Below are positions 861 through 10,900 of a stretch of 64,000 bases of DNA, one piece after another. Positions within the stretch are counted from its first letter, which is position 1; each line of letters starts with the position of its first letter. The notes below the pieces were generated by a model that was given only the letters and a program-made list of their open reading frames with translations, made no database searches and was not told the origin of the DNA. The DNA is from Dendrophyllia cribrosa (taxonomy: Eukaryota; Cnidaria; Anthozoa; Scleractinia; Dendrophylliidae): the NCBI GenBank assembly GCA_024195265.1, contig JAJLRJ010000006.1:4512407-4576406 (forward strand), written 5' to 3'. The position numbers were made by a program, and so were the translations under genes.

Positions 861-2082
861 ATAAACTCCCAAGAGTACTAAAAAAAATTCAAGAAAAATC
901 CCAATTTGTATTTTGTAAACTATTGAAAAACTAATAGTACCATGCAAAAGAACTGAAGAGGTTTCATTTGAATGGTCACACCATAGGATTTCATCCACGG
1001 ACTCAAAATTTAGAACAAATGGTACCATGCAAAAGTACTGCTGAAGAGGTTTCATTTGAATGGTCACACCATAGGATTTCATCAACTGACTCAAAAGTTA
1101 GAACAAATGGTACCATGCAAAAGTACTGCTGAAGAGGTTTCATTTGAATGGTCACACCATAGGATTTCATCAACTGACTCAAAAGTTAGAACAAATGGTA
1201 CCATGTAAAGGTACTGCTGAAGAGGTTTCATTTGAATGGTCACACCATAGGATTTCATCAACTGACTCAAAAGTTAGAACAAATGGTACCATGTAAAAGT
1301 ACTGCTGAAGAGGTTTCATTTGAATGGTCACACCATAGGATTTCATCCACGGACTTAAAAGTTAGAACAAATGGTACCATGCAAAAGTACTGCTGAAGAG
1401 GTTTCATTTGAATGGTCACACCATAGGATTTCATCCACGGACTCAAAAGTTAGAACAAATGGTACCATGTAAAAGTACTGCTGAAGAGGTTTCATTTGAA
1501 TGGTCACACCATAGGATTTCATCCACGGACTCAAAAGTTAGAACAAATGGTACCATGCAAAAGTACTGCTGAAGAGGTTTCATTTGAATGGTCACACCAT
1601 AGGATTTCGTCAACAGACTCAAAAGTTAGAACAAATGGTACCACGCAAAAGTACTGCTGAAGAGGTTTCATTTGAATGGTCACACCATAGGATTTCATCA
1701 ACAGACTCAAAAGTTAGAACAAATGGTACCATGCAAAAGTACTGCTGAAGAGGTTTCATTTGAATGGTCACACCATAGGATTTCATCAACAGACTCAAAA
1801 GTTAGAACAAATGGTACCATACAAAAGTACTGCTGAAGAGGTTTCATTTGAATGGTCACACCATAGGATTTCATCCACGGACTCAAAAGTTAGAACTACA
1901 TTACATGTCTCCATAAACTGACTTTGGAAGTGAAAGGGTGCGACACGCCTTACCGTGAGCACCCAACAAACTTTTTTACAAGTTAGCCAATCAGAGAGTG
2001 CGAATTCAATTGACAGGCACGTCTCCTCGCAAAGTTGAGCAAGGTCAAATGTAATCTTGACTCTGGGAGTGAAAGGGTTAAA
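861..2082 (-). mobile_element. TIR element with internal 88-bp repeats, long copy
   Basis: Non-autonomous DNA element. One end reads AACTCCCAAGAGT (864), the other, near 2060-2082, reads on the minus strand as TTAACCCTTTCACTCCCAG; these are imperfect terminal inverted repeats. The same two ends bracket the short copy at 9689-10058 in opposite orientation. The interior holds about eleven 88-bp units. The right end is partly duplicated: a second, diverged end (about 1905-1945) lies about 130 bp inside the outer one. The element lies in the Dicer intron after the RNase IIIa exon, its outer end starting about 15 bp from the splice donor at 2096. Confidence 0.75.
939..1893. repeat. 88-bp tandem repeat array, about 11 copies
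   Basis: The 14-mer GAACAAATGGTACC recurs every 88 bp (for example 1013 and 1101). Units differ by a few bases, mainly CATCCACGG versus CATCAACTG or CATCAACAG, and GCAAAAG versus GTAAAAG. Variants are intermixed, which points to repeated unequal exchange rather than one burst. Confidence 0.95.
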
Positions 2083-2096
2083 ACGAAAGTCTGTAC

Positions 2097-3858
2097 CTGA
2101 AGGTTCGTCCTGAACAAAAAGACTTCCATCTTCGTCTTCCTCCTCGCACTCTTGAGAGTTCTTATCTGGCATCAAAAAGAGTTGACTGTTGGTAAATGCA
2201 TCAGAATCGCTGTCATTATCCACGTAATAGAACCCAGGTGGCAGCCAGTTGACCAGGGGATTGAACATCCGGGTTATCATGTACGAAGGCACGCCTCGCT
2301 GCCGTGCGAGATAAAACAGCTGCCTGTTACTCACTCTAAGTCCTCGGGTAAATGACAACTTGCCCTCGTTTTCGTGCCGGTGCTCAAAGAAGACTAAGGA
2401 GGAGATAGCGTACTTCACGAACGAGTCTCCAAGCATCTCGAGTCGCTCAAGAGAAAACAGGTCCCCAGCAGAGCTGGTAGTGAGGGCGCGAAGTATTAAG
2501 GTTGATGATGGACCGCATGATTGGTATAAGCGGGACAACTGAGGGTCGGTCCAAATGGTGACTGGAGAAACTTTGCTGTCAACTGCTTCAAACGGCTTGT
2601 TATGATCAACAGGCAACGACGCCTCAGGGTCTACAAGAGTAGAAACTTGCTCACTTCCAGAAGTGTCCATGTTATTTCCACTGGGATTGTCTTCACTTGC
2701 TGGGATAGATGATGTTTCGTGCTTTGCCCTCAGGCCATAACAACTTGCAGATGAGGCCTCACTGCTGGAATGTATACCTTGAGAATGAAGGTTTTCTGCG
2801 ATCACCATCATATCAAGATTTTCCTCTCCAGAAATTCGTATATTTGTTAACGCTTCACATAACGCTGTAGAGTGTGATGAGATGGGTCCATCTGTACCTG
2901 CAATGCAAGAAAGATTGTCCTTTGATTTTTTGCACAACTGTGCGGAATGTGATGTCGTAGGTTTTTCTGTACCTAAGTCAGTGGGTTTGTCGTCTGAATT
3001 TTCTGTGACACAATCGGTTTGACACACAACTTCCTCGCCAGCTAAATCTGTGAATTGCGATGTGGTTGGATTAATCTGTGTAGCATTGTCCAAGGGTTTT
3101 GCATTGGATTTCTCTGTGACAGAGTTTGTCCAACGTCCATTCGCCTCGCACACAAACCCTGAAGAGTGTGATGTGAGAGGTTTACTTGTACCCAGATCAG
3201 GAAAGGGTTTGTCGCTTGTCAAATGCGTTGTGCCGAGATTCTCTTTACCCATTTCACAGGACTTCTCACTTGAATCCTTTGCGACAGAACCTCTTTGATT
3301 CATAATTTCATTACTCGCTAAATCTGGTGTGGCTGGCTTGCCCTCACCATCCATGTCAACACATTTATCATTTGATGCCTCTAAGACAGAATCTCTTTGA
3401 TTCACAATTTCCTCTCTCTTCAAATCTGTGATATATGGTGTGTTTTCCTTAATGTCTGTATTACTTGACTCCTGAGGAACATATCCTCTTTCACTTACAA
3501 TCTCCTCCCCCACCATCTCCCCCATAGTCAGGAGTGGTAGTGGGACATTTTTCGGCCACTCGACGGCTCCCCTGCCGAGGGCCATAGCAACAGAGATCCT
3601 AAACTCCTCAGCAACTAGAAACGATTCCATGCGATACAACACCGCTGGCAGAATGAACAGCTCTCGCCACAGATACCCAGGCAACGGATGAACAGAACAC
3701 AGCTCTGGAATCACAAAAACCTGTGACTTCTGTGAGCGTTTGGAATCTTTGCCGGGTACAGTGAGATATTGCCCCTTGATGTTCAGGTAGCGGGGAAGCA
3801 GGAAGTTCAATCTCCAGGAGATGTGATCAACATCCAACATGGGTTGGTCTAAAGTTAC
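2097..3858 (-). CDS. Dicer: Dicer exon 9 (PAZ end, acidic linker, RNase IIIa)
   Basis: Acceptor TTTGTTAG|GTAACT, chosen over an alternative 10 bp further in because only it keeps phase with exon 8 and has a good pyrimidine tract. Encodes LDQPMLDVDHISWRLNFLLP (PAZ end), then about 270 residues of acidic, Ser/Thr-rich linker with degenerate ~34-residue repeats, then RNase IIIa with ERLEMLGDSF and VNWLPPGF. It ends GAACCTTCAG|GTACAG in phase 1. The open frame that runs on past 2097 into the 88-bp repeats is intron. Confidence 0.9.
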
Positions 3859-6308
3859 CTAACAAACACAAACAATGAGAAAGATGTAATGTTCATCATA
3901 TCACGAGCGTGTGACAAAGAAAAAATAACTATGTCCCCGACAGCAATCGAACCTATGACCTTCCGTATACCGGTCGGATCCTAACCACTGAGCTACGAGA
4001 GACTCGTGGCGAGCTTGGCCATATACTAGGTTCAAACACTGGTCAGATGCTCTAACCACTGAGCTACGAGAGACTCGTGGCGAGGCAATTGTCCCTTTCG
4101 TAAACGGTCGATGCCATTTTAGCGACACTTAGAAAAATTTCCACCAATTTTAGAATTATTTTTTCTATCAGTAAAAGAAAATTGCAATTAATTACCTAGA
4201 ATCGAACCCAGAACCTCTGCATACTAACATTTCTTCTTTACCACTAGACCACTGGGTTGATCCGGCAAACCCAAGAAAAATTTAATTATAAAAGGTGCTT
4301 TTCTTAATATATATCAATAACGGGTCACCCTAACCCTAAATCTTACCTAACCGCGAATCTAGCTTAGATCTAATAATCGCTTTACCTAGGCCCAATTTTA
4401 TCTATTAATGATAGTCTACTTTCGTCCCAATCCAGGCATAAACTAAAGAGAAATAGCATCGACAATTACAAAAGACTTGGTTACTAATGAATGCTAATGA
4501 TGGCATCGACCTTTAAAAATGGCATCGACCGTTTACGAAAGGGAAATCAGCCGTGGCGAGCCAGGCCATATACTAGGTTTATATATGACATGCGTCCTGT
4601 GTACTGCTAGGATCAGCAATGTCGAAAGCGTCATGTGTGGTGATAAATAGAGAAAGATGGTGAATGTAAAGCTCGGTAATGAAAAGAGAAAGATGTAATG
4701 TTTATCATGTCACGAGCGTGGAACAAGGAGTTTTTCTTTGTCCCACGCTCGTGACACGATAAACATTCCATCTTTCTCTTTTCATTACCGAGCTTAAAGG
4801 GGCATTGTCACGCAAATTTTGCTGTGTTTTGGTCAAAATACACTAAATATATGACAAAGTACCTTTGCTCAAACATAAAATTGCTTTTAGAACACCAAGA
4901 AGATAATATCAAGTGCTTTCTTCAAGGAAGAACAAACTATAATAAGTTTTTCTGCGATTTTTCCACGACTCTTGGGAGGAACTTGAAAAAATTGGCCAAT
5001 TTTTTCAAGTTGCAATCCATTTCCATTCTGGACATCCGCAGCCTAAGATAACGAATACTAGTTTCTGTGCACTGATGGAGTATTTGTTAGCAAAACTGGA
5101 CCATTATTTGTAGGTTTCCATTGAAACAAATATGTTTTTTTGGCTTTTCAAAGTGATACTAAAAATAGGTGACAGTGTCCCTTTAACGTTTATCATTATT
5201 CTATATTACCACCAGAAAAAAAAGTTCCAAACTTCGTTTCTTTACGTTACGTTACACTAAGTTGCGTTAAGCTTCGGTACGCTACCTTAAACTACGTTAT
5301 GTTACGTTACGCCCCGTTATGTTGCGTTACCTTACACTTTTGAATACAAAATGAAGAAAGCAAGGCCATATAGTTAATTACACGATATTTTCAAATAAAA
5401 AACAAAAACGGTATTTAAAAAGGAGGACCGTGAGTTTACCCCTATTTTAGGTCCCCCAACTAACTAACTAACTAACTAACTAAATTAATAAACTACAAAA
5501 ATATATAATACAGATGGTTAATAATGCTTGTAGAAAATATAAAATCTAAAATTTTGAATATGAACATCAGGCACTGAAGCAGCAGAAAAATATAATGTAT
5601 AAATATGTAATCAGTTGATGTTCATCCACTTTTTTAAACTCATTTTAAATCTATTGATGTATTAATACAGTTCACAACAACTATGAGATAATTGCTTCCA
5701 ATTACAATTGGTAACAATTAGCGTTCCTTGAAGCTTTCTGCATCAAACATTTCAAGCCTAGCATTAACGAAAGACTGAAAGCCTCTAGAGAATTAGACCT
5801 GTTTCTCTGATTACCTAGAATTCTAGTTATTTTACGTAATGTTAACACGGCTAATTACCTATGATATTTAAGTTGCCCTTTTATAAAATATCATTACATG
5901 ACCATGACTGTCATAGAGTCGAAATATTGTAGGTTTCAATTATCTTGTAATAAACCAAAACTTGGTTTCTACAATGATATCAATTCTCGGCCTTGCTTTC
6001 TTCATTTTGTTACCTTACACTAAGGGACCGTCGACATTTTCACAAGTTCCCCGCTTAACGTCCACTGGACGTTTAGGAGGGGGGGGAGGGGGGGGGGGGG
6101 TTAGGGAGAGTCGAGATTTGGACGTTAGCGCGGGGCATTTGGAGCAAGTACGAAATTGTTACTTTTTAATCCTAGAAGTGCCACACTAAAGCCCATTTAC
6201 AAATAATGTTTGTTGTTTCACACATCAGTAGTCTCGCAAACTGTATTCACCCGACTATTAAAAAACGTCGCTCCAGGCGACGTCGGGACGGTGAAAAAAG
6301 AGGAGGAA

Positions 6309-6347
<39 letters not shown>

Positions 6348-7903
6348 CTGACCTTAACGTCCAGTGGATGTTAAGCGGGGAACTTGTGAATATGTCGACG
6401 GCCCCTAAACTACGTTATGCTTTGTTGCGTTGCCTTATCTTACACAAAATTATGTCACGATTGGCCAGGTTACTCTAATATGCTGCTACATTACCTTACA
6501 CTAAAGTACGTTATGTTATGATACGTTACGCCACGTTACGTTACAGTGCTACATCAAATTACGTTAAGTTACACTACGTCATACGTTGTTACGTTACGTT
6601 ATGTCACACTGCGTTGTGTTACGTTACGTTACACAACATTACGTTACGCTTTGCAACGTTATGTTTGCGTTAAATTACCTGTGTGCCGTATCGTACTTGG
6701 TAATTGTTCAGCGAATGTGGCTGCTGCTGCGTTGTGTAACGTTGCGTTACACAACGTTGCGTTACGCTTCATTATGTTACGTTACGTTATGTTTGCGTTA
6801 CGTCACCTGAGTGCCTTAGTAATATTCAGCGAATGTGGTTGCTGCTGGGTTGTGTTACATTACGTTACGTTATGTTTGCGTTACATTACCTGTGCGCCGT
6901 ATCGTGCTTGGTAATATTCAGCGAATGTGGTTGCTGCTGGGTTGTGTTACATCACGTTACGTTATGTTTGCGTTACATTACCTGTGCGCCGTATCGTGCT
7001 TGGTAATATTCAGCGAATGTGGCTGCTGCTGGGTTTGTGCTACATTACGTTACGTTATGTTTGCGTTACATTACCTGTGCGCCGTATCGTGCCTGGTAAT
7101 ATTCGGCGAATGTGGCTGCTGCTTCTGCGTTCGGGAATGGATCAGCAGGGCTGCGATCGTAACAGATGTCAGCTACATAATAACGAGGACATTTCTCACT
7201 GTAAACCGCTGTCACGACTGCATCTTTGAATACCTCCATATCTTGGATACCAGGAGGGGGTGGGTCAGTGGGATTGTCGAAGCTACCGAGCGCATGCTCA
7301 ATAGACTGAATAAAATCAAAGGCGATTTCTTTGTGGTCCGATCCATTAACAGGAAACAAGCTGCTACCTGGTGAATCCTTTAGAAGTACAACATAATACC
7401 CAGAGGAGGCAATGGTGGGGTCAAAATGCGGTAACGCCATTGCAGAAGAGCTTCTTGGTTTTGCAATGTCCTTGAAGATGTATCCGGTGAACCTCTGTAG
7501 CAGAGAGAGCTGATCAGAAGATGGGACAAAAGGCTTCGCACTGCACTCAGTTATTGTCGCAGTTACCTCTCCAGCTCTGTCAAATACTAACATCCCCGGC
7601 AACTGTGACATCAAATAAAAAATGAATATGATTACTTTATCCACTGAGAGTGTCATATCTGACAAAGTTTCTAAAATTTTCACTTGAGAAAACAGTAGAA
7701 ACGAACAGTACCATAGGAAAGTACTGCTCAGCAGCTTTCAGTTTTAGGGTCACACTTTAGGATTTCATCCAGACTAAACCGTTCGACCTGTATATTGTAT
7801 AAATGTAAAGAGTAAAGTCGCACATAAATCACAGGTGGCCCACACGACCGGAGCTTAACCCGGTTTCTGTAATATGGATCAACAAGGAGTGTTACTACTC
7901 CCC

Positions 7904-7943
<40 letters not shown>

Positions 7944-10900
7944 CCCCCCCAACCCCCCACCCCCGCCCTGTATGGGGTACTACTCCATCGCAGAATTACC
8001 CGCAGCATTTCGTCGCCGGTACCCATTTATACACCTTGGTGGAGAGAGACAATGTGGAGTTAAGTTTCTTGTCTGAGGAAACAACACGACGGCAGACACC
8101 AGGCTCAAACCACCGATCTTCGGGAGCGGGCACGAAGCTCTCGAAACACCTCACAGGATCGGCTGAGAAAACAAACAACAGAAGAATGGACCCTAGCTCT
8201 GAAAAGGTAGAGCTTCCGTTATACCCAGGGCCAATAAAATTAGAGGTTCCAAAGAGCTTCGTGGCACCTGACCTTCGGATCTGAGGTGCAACGCGCTAAC
8301 CACTACACCACCGTACATCTTAAAGTGTATATGACAGTGATTTTTTTATGTGCTTGATCGAATCTACATGATGTTCTGATAAGAAAATAGAAAAAAAATT
8401 TCGATATCGATTTTTCTTCTCTGCGTTGTAGCCGTCTAAAAACGTGAAATTTCACTTCCGGTGTGTTACAAAACCGCACAAGAAGAAAGACTGGAAATAG
8501 TCCGCTGTGACGTCAATACAAGAATGCCGGTGTCGAGGTTTCTCAGTTCCTCACATTTTTTGATGCGCCCTGAGGAAGAAACATGGTTCTATTAAGGTGT
8601 GTTGTCTATGGTTGTAGCAACACGCACCAAAAAACGGAGGAACTGAGAAATCGCGACACTGGCATTCTTGTATTGACGTCACAGCGGACTATTTCCAGTC
8701 TTTCTTCTTGCGCGGTTTTGTAACACACCGGAGAAGGAAAATCGATATTGAATTTTTTTTCCATTTTCTTATCAGAACATCATGTAGATTCGATCAAGCA
8801 AATAAAAAAATCACTGTCATATACACTTTAATAAATAGTTTTGTAAAATTCATTAATAATTCATAAGGGTACTAACAAATAGAAATGAGCCATTCCAATC
8901 ACATGATTACCCTGTATAGGCCGATACAATCTTGATACAACTCACGAGTGGTTGTATCTAATTTGCATTCCAGATACAACTCACGAGTGGTTGTATCTAA
9001 TTTACATGTGAATGTGAATTTCACAAGTTGTTTACTACATTCGCGTCCGTGTTGTATCGGCACTATACATTCACTCGCCTTCGGCTCGTGATTGTATAGG
9101 CCGATACAACACTCCCGCTCATGTAGTAAACATTACATACAATCGCACGAAAGCAGCTTCAGTTACTAAATACGCCCTCCATAGTTAATACTGCAATGCA
9201 TTGTCTGGCAAGGAGCCGTAAAATAAGTCTTTTAAGAACTACTGCGCTAAAACACTACAACATTTTGCCTGCAGTATAGTTTTGTGGTATTTTTCTAACC
9301 TTGGGCAAAGGCTTTCTGGAGAGAATTCCAAGACAATGAACAGCTTCTGTGGACTGAGGTTTTCTCTGAGACCTGACTGCTCGTTCAAAGGTCCATGGTT
9401 TGGTGAGTACCACGTTGATGGAATATACAAAGCTTGGCTCATCAGCAACTGGAAAATTGTTCTCCAAGATGGATGGAAACTGTGAAAACAAAATGATTTT
9501 GTGAGCATAAAAGTTACGAAGCTCTACGAAAATGATGCTGCAAAGAAAAAAAAAGAAGCTTTGTATATGGACATTTCATTTGGATCAACCGAACTTCGTC
9601 AGACGCAAAAATCTATGAATGACAAGAAAGAGCTTATATATACATTAAGTGTCAAAGGGGCTTGACTCTTAAAGTGAAGACTTTAACCCTTTCACTCCCA
9701 GAGTCAATTATGGAGACATAATTTAATCCTAACTTTTGAGTCTGTCGACGAAATCCTATGGTGTGACCATTCAAGTGAAACCTCTTCGGCAGTACTTTTG
9801 CATGGTACCATTTGTTCTAACTTTTGAGTCTGTTGATGAAATCCTATGGTGTGACCATTCAAATGAAACCTCTTCAGCAGTACTTTTGCATGGTACCATT
9901 TGTTTTAACTTTTGAGTCTGTTGATGAAATCCTATGGTGTGACCATTCAAATGAAACCTCTTCGGCAGTACTTTTGCATGGTACCATTTGTTTTCCAATA
10001 TTTTCTGGGATTTTTCTTGAATTTTGATGTTTGGCACTCTTGGGAGTTGAATGGTTAAAATACCTTTTTCTTGTATGCTCTGTTCCTCTTCACTGAGCCA
10101 TCCATTCCCATACCACTATCAGCAACTTCACAGTCACACTCTTCAGTCTCCGCAGTCAGACTCAACATTTTGAATCTGCAACAAACATAATAGAGCGGTT
10201 TTCAATTGAGTACAGAAAGTAATTTCGCGATTGCTTTGGTTTTGCATTGCCACAAACACGTACGCTTTGTGATTGGCTAAAAAATCTCGCGCCACCTTCT
10301 CAACCAATCAGAGGCAAAACTTTGACCTATTTTGGTAAAAACTATGATATAATACCTTTACTTAAGGTGATGTTACACGGAACGATTCGCAACGACGATT
10401 TTTAGTGCAACATGGGTGCGCGGACGATTTTCTTCGCAATGTTTGCGTTGCGAAGTTTTTGAATCATCTTTAAAAACTTGCAAAGCAAAACACGAATTTT
10501 ACTGAAGTTGTTTTGTGTAACATACCTGTCGTCAATTTTGTTGCGCTAAAAACCGTCGTTGCGAATCGTCCCGTGTAACATCACCTTTAGAACTTTTTTA
10601 AAAAAATACTATAATACCATGAGAAAGTAAGCAAGCAATTCTTGAAAGTGGAACAAATCATGGTCTGATCTATAACATTTTGGAAATAAAAATGTGAGAA
10701 CTTGAAAAAAGGTGAGGCTAACTTTTTTCAAGTTGCAATTCATTCAGACCTATGACTCGAGACACTCATCGACAGTTGGTACATATCACAAGACTAGACC
10801 ATTGTTTTTCGGATTCTGCTCATACAAAAGCATTTGTTGCTTTTTGAAATGACAACAAATCCCTGTGCAATGACCCTTTTAACTCCTGGAAGGTGCTTAT

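What the first reader, a model, noticed from the sequence alone, without database searches (positions are those of the whole stretch)
6678..7121. Tandem copies of the PAZ-exon end, each with a splice donor, in the Dicer intron
The last ~47 bp of exon 8 plus the donor occur in four further copies downstream in transcript order, at 82-130-bp spacing inside ACGTT satellite. The two differences between the exon and the nearest copy's coding block are both synonymous in the exon frame. Any use of a copy donor adds an in-frame stop just after the true exon end, which would yield a Dicer without RNase III domains. This looks like satellite expansion that captured a splice site, or a splicing decoy array.
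Basis: partly seen in the sequence, partly recalled or inferred. Interest (0 to 1): 0.75.

Follow-up and report, generated by a model that had tools for sequence, protein, structure and literature searches.

The report
Repeated exon-end array in coral Dicer
In the Dicer gene of what is probably a stony coral, the last 48 bases of one exon and its splice site have been copied four times into the following intron by ordinary repeat expansion; this looks like a rare but already described kind of DNA accident ("mirage" minisatellite), and nothing seen here shows that the copies affect how the gene is spliced.

Summary
On the minus strand, the last 48 bp of the Dicer platform/PAZ exon (7602-7075) plus about 40 bp of intron recur four times (donors at 6981, 6889, 6806, 6678) inside a degenerate GTAAC microsatellite. 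A second, near-identical stretch of the same assembly carries the same array with a one-base difference. The four copies share one junction that the exon lacks, so they probably descend from one duplication that then multiplied. c3 has a 9-bp deletion and an in-frame stop, c4 a frame-shifting base, and exonic and intronic parts of the unit diverge alike: neutral decay. The donor did not come from the satellite: read-through ORFs of relatives place the same phase-0 intron in a coral group including this species, and show it absent elsewhere. No RNA was available. Amphioxus has such arrays ("mirages": Adh3, globins, TnC, PGBD5), with regular splicing reported. Best reading: a cnidarian mirage, mostly silent, perhaps leaking a little nonsense mRNA. 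A splicing decoy or switch is untested and unlikely. New member of a known kind; modest interest.

The parts
7075..7602 (-).
   Evidence: Pfam Dicer_platform and PAZ, both just under the curated cut-off; PDB human Dicer 4ngb E 8.7e-14; acceptor TGTCACAG|TTGCC
7075..7122 (-). exon-end block that was copied (48 nt, 16 codons), followed by the real donor at 7074-7073 (CAG|GTAATG)
6982..7029 (-). copy c1, 46/48 identical; donor CAG|GTAATG at 6981
6890..6937 (-). copy c2, 45/48 identical; donor CAG|GTAATG at 6889
6807..6845 (-). copy c3, 9-bp deletion and in-frame TAA; donor CAG|GTGACG at 6806
6679..6727 (-). copy c4, 1-bp insertion; donor CAG|GTAATT at 6678
3859..7074 (-). intron 8 (3216 nt), CAG|GTAATG ... 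TTTGTTAG|GTAACT; absent in one coral group
   Evidence: joins GAQ to VTLDQP in frame, collinear with other corals
6407..7074 (-). degenerate GTAAC/ACGTT pentanucleotide repeat holding the array
5225..5345 (-). remainder of the same pentanucleotide repeat beyond two stretches with inverted ends
2097..3858 (-). Dicer exon 9: from VTLDQP to the first RNase III domain
   Evidence: Pfam Ribonuclease_3; tblastn with P0001, P0002, P0005

Best explanation
It is a mirage-type minisatellite. Intron 8 was already present, most simply gained once in this coral group. Its start became, or lay beside, a slippery GTAAC pentanucleotide repeat. One misaligned exchange or slippage event, helped by short shared runs between the exon (AACGCAGAAGCAGCAG) and the repeat (AACGCA), copied the exon end, the donor and about 40 bp of intron downstream. 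Unequal exchange then multiplied that 92-bp unit, and the more diverged copies decayed neutrally. The real donor at 7074 most likely remains the main one; any slip to a copy donor adds Val-Met-stop, with an exon junction 84 nt after the stop (copy 1), which would normally send the mRNA to nonsense-mediated decay. Shown: the copies, the shared junction, the decay, the stop; supported by relatives' proteins: the age of the intron. Inferred: the recombination mechanism, the order of events, the dominance of donor 7074, and the decay of any mis-spliced mRNA.
For: All four copies share a junction (repeat + GCA/CCA-GCA-GCA/ACC) that the exon lacks, which points to one founding event. Exon versus c1: 2 of 48 differences in the exonic part, 2 substitutions and 1 indel in about 42 intronic bases, so no extra constraint on the coding block; c3 has a 9-bp deletion with an in-frame stop and c4 a frame shift. 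The exon frame is intact and collinear with relatives. Six weaker own-genome matches are GTAAC-type repeats in which the exon block has no match better than E 1.7. The exon-end array was found only at the two copies of this Dicer region (a loose first look that scores only the best candidates). Matching published structures: amphioxus globins, Adh3, PGBD5, TnC.
Against: The four copies all keep CAG|GT, and five of the six strongest U1 matches among the 227 GTs scanned are the exon donor and the four copies, so silence is not self-evident. No RNA was available. The founding breakpoint is not uniquely placed because of the GCA repeats. Copy c4, read as a micro-exon from its CGCAG, is 48 nt and open, so not every use of a copy need be harmful.
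Confidence: 0.81

Rival explanations
1. Poison-donor array: copy donors are used often enough to divert Dicer pre-mRNA into nonsense transcripts, setting or regulating Dicer level.
For: c1-c3 donors equal the real one in U1 pairing (-9.4, -9.4, -9.5 against -9.4 kcal/mol) and c4 is close (-8.1); the exonic flank, with any enhancers, is copied too; stop 84 nt before the c1 junction.
Against: No RNA; amphioxus mirages were reported not to disturb regular splicing; blocks decay neutrally; the exon-8 ORFs of relatives do not continue with VM (0 of 7), so no sign of conservation, though no DNA of relatives was seen.
Confidence: 0.08
2. Dual-specific or recursive sites: the AG|GT cores of the copies serve as acceptor and then donor, so the array is removed stepwise without changing the mRNA.
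For: Every copy has an AGGT core; AGGT sites in tandem repeats can act both ways in human genes (PMC10809524, passages).
Against: Pyrimidine share in the 20 nt before the copy AGs is 0.40-0.50 against 0.60-0.85 near 11 of 12 Dicer exon starts tried (one gave no AG; the AG richest in pyrimidines was taken at each, which favours the contrast).
Confidence: 0.04
3. Copy c4 is an optional 48-nt micro-exon that adds 16 residues (QQPHSLNNYQVRYGTQ) in frame between exon 8 and exon 9.
For: From CGCAG (first base 6726) to CAG|GTAATT (6678) it is 48 nt, a multiple of 3, without a stop; the same reading of c1, c2 and c3 gives 47, 47 and 38 nt.
Against: Poor pyrimidine tract (0.45); one copy in three would be a multiple of 3 by chance; it would insert into the PAZ region; no RNA.
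Confidence: 0.02
4. Assembly artefact: the copies are a collapse or expansion error.
For: The region lies in low-complexity repeats; the second copy of the locus ends at a 500-N gap and has many single-base indels.
Against: Copies differ from each other by substitutions and indels and the second assembled sequence holds the same five units with one 1-bp difference at 7034.
Confidence: 0.03
5. The array is a remnant of how intron 8 was gained (intron gain by tandem duplication of an AGGT-bearing exon end), rather than a later event.
For: Intron 8 is a clade-specific intron with AGGTAA at both ends, and mirages have been proposed as a route to new introns.
Against: The intron position is shared by exon-8 ORFs of relatives at large protein distances, while c1/c2 are 94-96% identical to the exon end; the real acceptor region is not a copy of the exon end.
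Confidence: 0.02

Closest known systems
Amphioxus 'mirages' (Adh3, globins BflGb6 and BflGb9, TnC, PGBD5)
   Same: Minisatellite-like tandem copies of an exon/intron boundary with AG/GT signals; BflGb9 has the same edge, the 3' boundary of an exon; units of the same order (reported 10-72, 60, 108 and 150-160 bp; here 92); in BflGb6 too, some units are homogenised and edge units diverged; regular splicing reported.
   Different: Other phylum (a probable stony coral) and gene (Dicer); lies inside a pentanucleotide microsatellite; splicing and copy-number polymorphism not tested here.
[quoted passage not shown]
   Same: Tandem duplication across an intron/exon boundary, there too in an RNA-silencing gene.
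   Different: There the duplication made a new intron; here the copies lie wholly within an older intron and no new intron is evident. Only the abstract was read.
Dual-specific splice sites in tandem-repeat genes (polyubiquitin UBC, PMC10809524)
   Same: AGGT cores repeated in tandem.
   Different: In UBC the repeats are coding and used; here copies lie in an intron and lack pyrimidine tracts. Passages only were read.

Membership tests
mirage minisatellite | tandem repeat unit spans an exon/intron boundary of an intact gene | tested here: met
   exons 8 and 9 open and collinear with relatives
mirage minisatellite | copies carry AG/GT splice signals | tested here: met
   5 of 5 units keep CAG|GT
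mirage minisatellite | partly homogenised units, diverged units at the edge | tested here: met
   c1-c2 differ by 1 of 48 + 1 of 41 bases; c3 and c4 diverged
mirage minisatellite | copy-number instability between haplotypes or in soma | tested here: inconclusive
   two assembled sequences both have five units; they may not be independent haplotypes
mirage minisatellite | regular splicing undisturbed | not testable with these tools
   no RNA data held
intron gain by tandem duplication | splice sites of the new intron come from the duplicated segment | tested here: not met
   intron 8 acceptor region TTTGTGTTTGTTAG is not a copy of the exon end (by eye); copies lie inside an older intron
poison exon / unproductive splicing switch | transcripts using the copy donors exist | not testable with these tools
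   no RNA data held
poison exon / unproductive splicing switch | copies conserved between species | tested here: inconclusive
   only proteins of relatives seen: 0 of 7 exon-8 ORFs continue with VM; no DNA of relatives

The most novel reading that the evidence does not exclude
The array is a tunable brake on Dicer: each added exon-end copy supplies another equal donor, so copy number sets how much Dicer pre-mRNA is diverted into nonsense transcripts, and unstable copy number makes RNA-interference dosage vary between coral individuals.
Probability: 0.05. Interest if true: 0.75.

Novelty: new member of a known kind. Interest (0 to 1): 0.36.

Why it matters
It is a natural test of how the spliceosome picks one of several almost identical donors: five CAG|GT sites with copied exonic flanks within 400 nt, of which only the first, used alone, keeps the frame of Dicer. 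In the listings the papers that I recognised as describing such arrays all concern amphioxus; a cnidarian case would suggest that they can arise wherever a microsatellite touches an exon edge. That is no proof that none has been described elsewhere. It also sits in an intron apparently gained within stony corals, which gives a setting that can be dated.

Tried and rejected
Rejected: (1) satellite created the donor: the intron position and its phase-0 GT are shared by relatives. (2) Array as a remnant of the intron's gain: the intron is far older than c1/c2. (3) Micro-exons from c1, c2 and c3: 47, 47 and 38 nt, not multiples of 3; c4 gives an open 48 nt and is kept as a weak rival. (4) Synonymous differences as sign of selection on the copies: too few, and c2 breaks the pattern. 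(5) True second Dicer gene 116 kb away: the left sequence (main blocks 99.7-99.8% identical) ends exactly at a 500-N gap and has single-base indels, some in exon stretches (12153, 16302), so a haplotig or duplicated contig end is likelier; not proven.

Led nowhere: ACGTT density in the rest of the window (highest 102 per 500 bases at 6501-7000, next 28 at 5001-5500; elsewhere at most 16); paper searches for duplicated donors (listings; four papers opened); literature on Dicer splicing (listings only). Number of Dicer genes in this genome, genome-wide count of the microsatellite and other mirages: not done, because the own-genome search answered only once.

In some searches parts of the Dicer translation were out of frame; searches use the corrected coordinates (exon 9 from 3858). 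In one search exon 10 was placed at -3414; one search puts its start at -3436, so that edge was tested slightly off.

Full report
What is there. The minus strand of the window carries a Dicer gene (Pfam Dicer_PBD and Ribonuclease_3 above the curated cut-off, Dicer_platform and PAZ just under it; 9 of 9 PDB matches of exon 8 are Dicer). The join is phase 0 and collinear with other coral Dicers. The source is probably a stony coral: the two named relatives among the 16 hits are Oculina patagonica and Montipora capricornis. The window lies in a 627-Mb assembly of 22 contigs.

The array. Downstream in transcript order the last 48 nt of exon 8 and about 40 nt of intron recur four times, at 93-, 92-, 92- and 118-bp spacing. 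c1 and c2 match the exon block at 46 and 45 of 48 positions; c3 has a 9-bp deletion and an in-frame stop, c4 a 1-bp insertion. The units sit in a degenerate GTAAC pentanucleotide repeat that continues to about 6407 and reappears at 5345-5225 beyond two stretches with inverted ends. Such repeats occur elsewhere in this genome: the six weaker matches are of this kind (central parts viewed) and contain no match to the exon block better than E 1.7. Chance is excluded (BLAST E down to 1.2e-17). Of 26 Dicer exon edges, several placed only roughly, this alone has an array; one other has a lone weaker copy.

Not a simple assembly error. The same region exists a second time on the same contig, about 116 kb away, at 99.7-99.8% identity in the main aligned blocks, with the same five units; the only difference within the array is one T at 7034. 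That second sequence ends exactly at a 500-N gap and has several one-base indels, so it looks like a retained haplotig or duplicated contig end; it is support, but perhaps not independent support.

Origin. All four copies share a junction between repeat and exon block that the exon itself lacks (exon AACGCAGAAGCAGCAGCC; copies AAC-C/G-CAGCAGCAG/ACC), so one duplication probably founded the array. Short shared AACGCA and GCA runs suggest slippage or unequal exchange with microhomology; this step is inferred. Exonic and intronic parts of the unit diverge alike (exon-c1: 2 of 48 against 2 substitutions and 1 indel in about 42). The more diverged copies do not keep the exon's reading frame open. 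That is neutral decay. The two synonymous exon/c1 differences say little: about a quarter of random changes there are synonymous (35 of 144; 16 of 48 transitions), and c2 has a third, non-synonymous one.

The intron is older than the array. Many ORFs of relatives in the protein collection look unspliced: several read a pyrimidine-rich acceptor at their start (for example P0008 MYFFFSLQLPGM, P0010 MKKLFVFLLQLPCM, P0046 MYLYVFLFQLPG), many others start at the first Met of exon 8, and several run into non-homologous tails. Fifteen such ORFs (P0001, P0003, P0004, P0006-P0016, P0046) cross the exon 8-exon 9 junction without interruption. Seven exon-8 ORFs (P0017-P0023) instead leave the homology at the codon where our intron starts: the residue after the junction is V (GT) in 7 of 7, followed by T, V, KCDLNLM, W, TWHK.., I and I; ours reads VM-stop. 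Some of these lie on short contigs, so an end may be a contig end rather than a stop, and in two (P0019, P0021) the BLAST alignment ran 8 residues past the junction, so five are clear and two less so. P0030 and P0031 read a pyrimidine-rich tract straight into VTLNQP. On a tree of exon 8 the intron-bearing rows, with ours, form one group (support 77/74; so in 74% of 200 bootstrap trees), and the intron-less rows include more distant lineages (P0015, P0016), so one gain is the simplest history. Caveats: the root is a midpoint, 10 of 26 inner branches are open, P0015, P0016 and the outgroups are long branches, and two NCBI-annotated rows (P0002, P0005) were kept out of the groups because they are spliced models. 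Eight still more distant proteins (P0049, P0050, P0053-P0058) also cross the junction, but whether they are unspliced was not established. The second interruption (from 2096 to about -3435, in window numbering continued leftward) is likewise absent from the uninterrupted ORFs P0001 and P0015. Hence the satellite did not provide the intron or the position of its donor; whether it later rewrote the first intron bases cannot be said.

Splicing. By pairing to the U1 5' end (recalled sequence) the real donor scores -9.4 kcal/mol, c1 -9.4, c2 -9.4, c3 -9.5 and c4 -8.1; among the 227 GTs scanned one other site reaches that range (-9.4 at 4346). Use of any copy donor by extending exon 8 gives ...GAQ-VM-stop; for c1 the stop lies 84 nt before the new junction, so nonsense-mediated decay is expected from general knowledge. 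As acceptors the copies are poor: pyrimidine share 0.40-0.50 against 0.60-0.85 at 11 of 12 Dicer exon starts tried, where the AG richest in pyrimidines was taken. As micro-exons c1-c3 would shift the frame (47, 47, 38 nt); c4 would not (48 nt, open, 16 residues). Without RNA I cannot say how often the copies are used.

Comparison with what is known. [quoted passage not shown] passages) and in TnC and PGBD5 (PMC3902484, section 17 read). These papers report that regular splicing is not disturbed, that copy number varies, that copies could nevertheless act as cryptic sites, and that they might seed new introns. The original Adh3 paper is not held. A potato RdRp gene gained an intron by duplication across an intron/exon boundary (PMC4974935, abstract only). 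Human AGGT sites in tandem repeats can act as donor and acceptor (PMC10809524, passages). On structure the coral array meets the description of a mirage; splicing behaviour and instability are untested.

Verdict. A genuine, well-defined curiosity: a mirage minisatellite in a probable coral Dicer, most likely neutral. The decoy or dosage-brake reading is attractive, cheap to test with RNA, and improbable.

Noticed in passing
window 6023-6406: Stretch with 55-bp inverted ends (93% complementary) in the GTAAC repeat, TTA on both sides by eye, poly-G inside; resembles a PIF/Harbinger-type MITE (label recalled, not tested).
   Followed up: partly
window 5346-6010: Second stretch with 22-bp perfect inverted ends, also within the pentanucleotide repeat.
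   Followed up: no
window 929-1896 and 9730-9994: Same 88-bp tandem repeat family in two Dicer introns, in opposite orientation (11 and 3 copies); similar repeats recalled from other corals.
   Followed up: no
G000 C19:4366001-4413114 (L009-L011, L020, L021): Near-identical second copy of much of the Dicer gene about 116 kb away, ending at a 500-N gap; probably a haplotig; ends before the first Dicer exon.
   Followed up: partly
window numbering -22683 to -22714 (left of the window, in L022): A lone 32-nt, 87.5% copy of the end of a later Dicer exon plus its donor, 1.2 kb downstream (E 1.9e-7, 1.5e-6), 20 control blocks x 26 edges gave 12 hits at E 0.01 or better, best 2.3e-6 (the exon-8 edge, mostly its microsatellite part). 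Possibly a second, single mirage-like copy.
   Followed up: partly
window 7074-3859 and 2096 to about -3435: Two Dicer introns present in this coral group but absent from uninterrupted ORFs of the other group and of more distant relatives: likely clade-specific intron gains within one ancestral long exon.
   Followed up: partly
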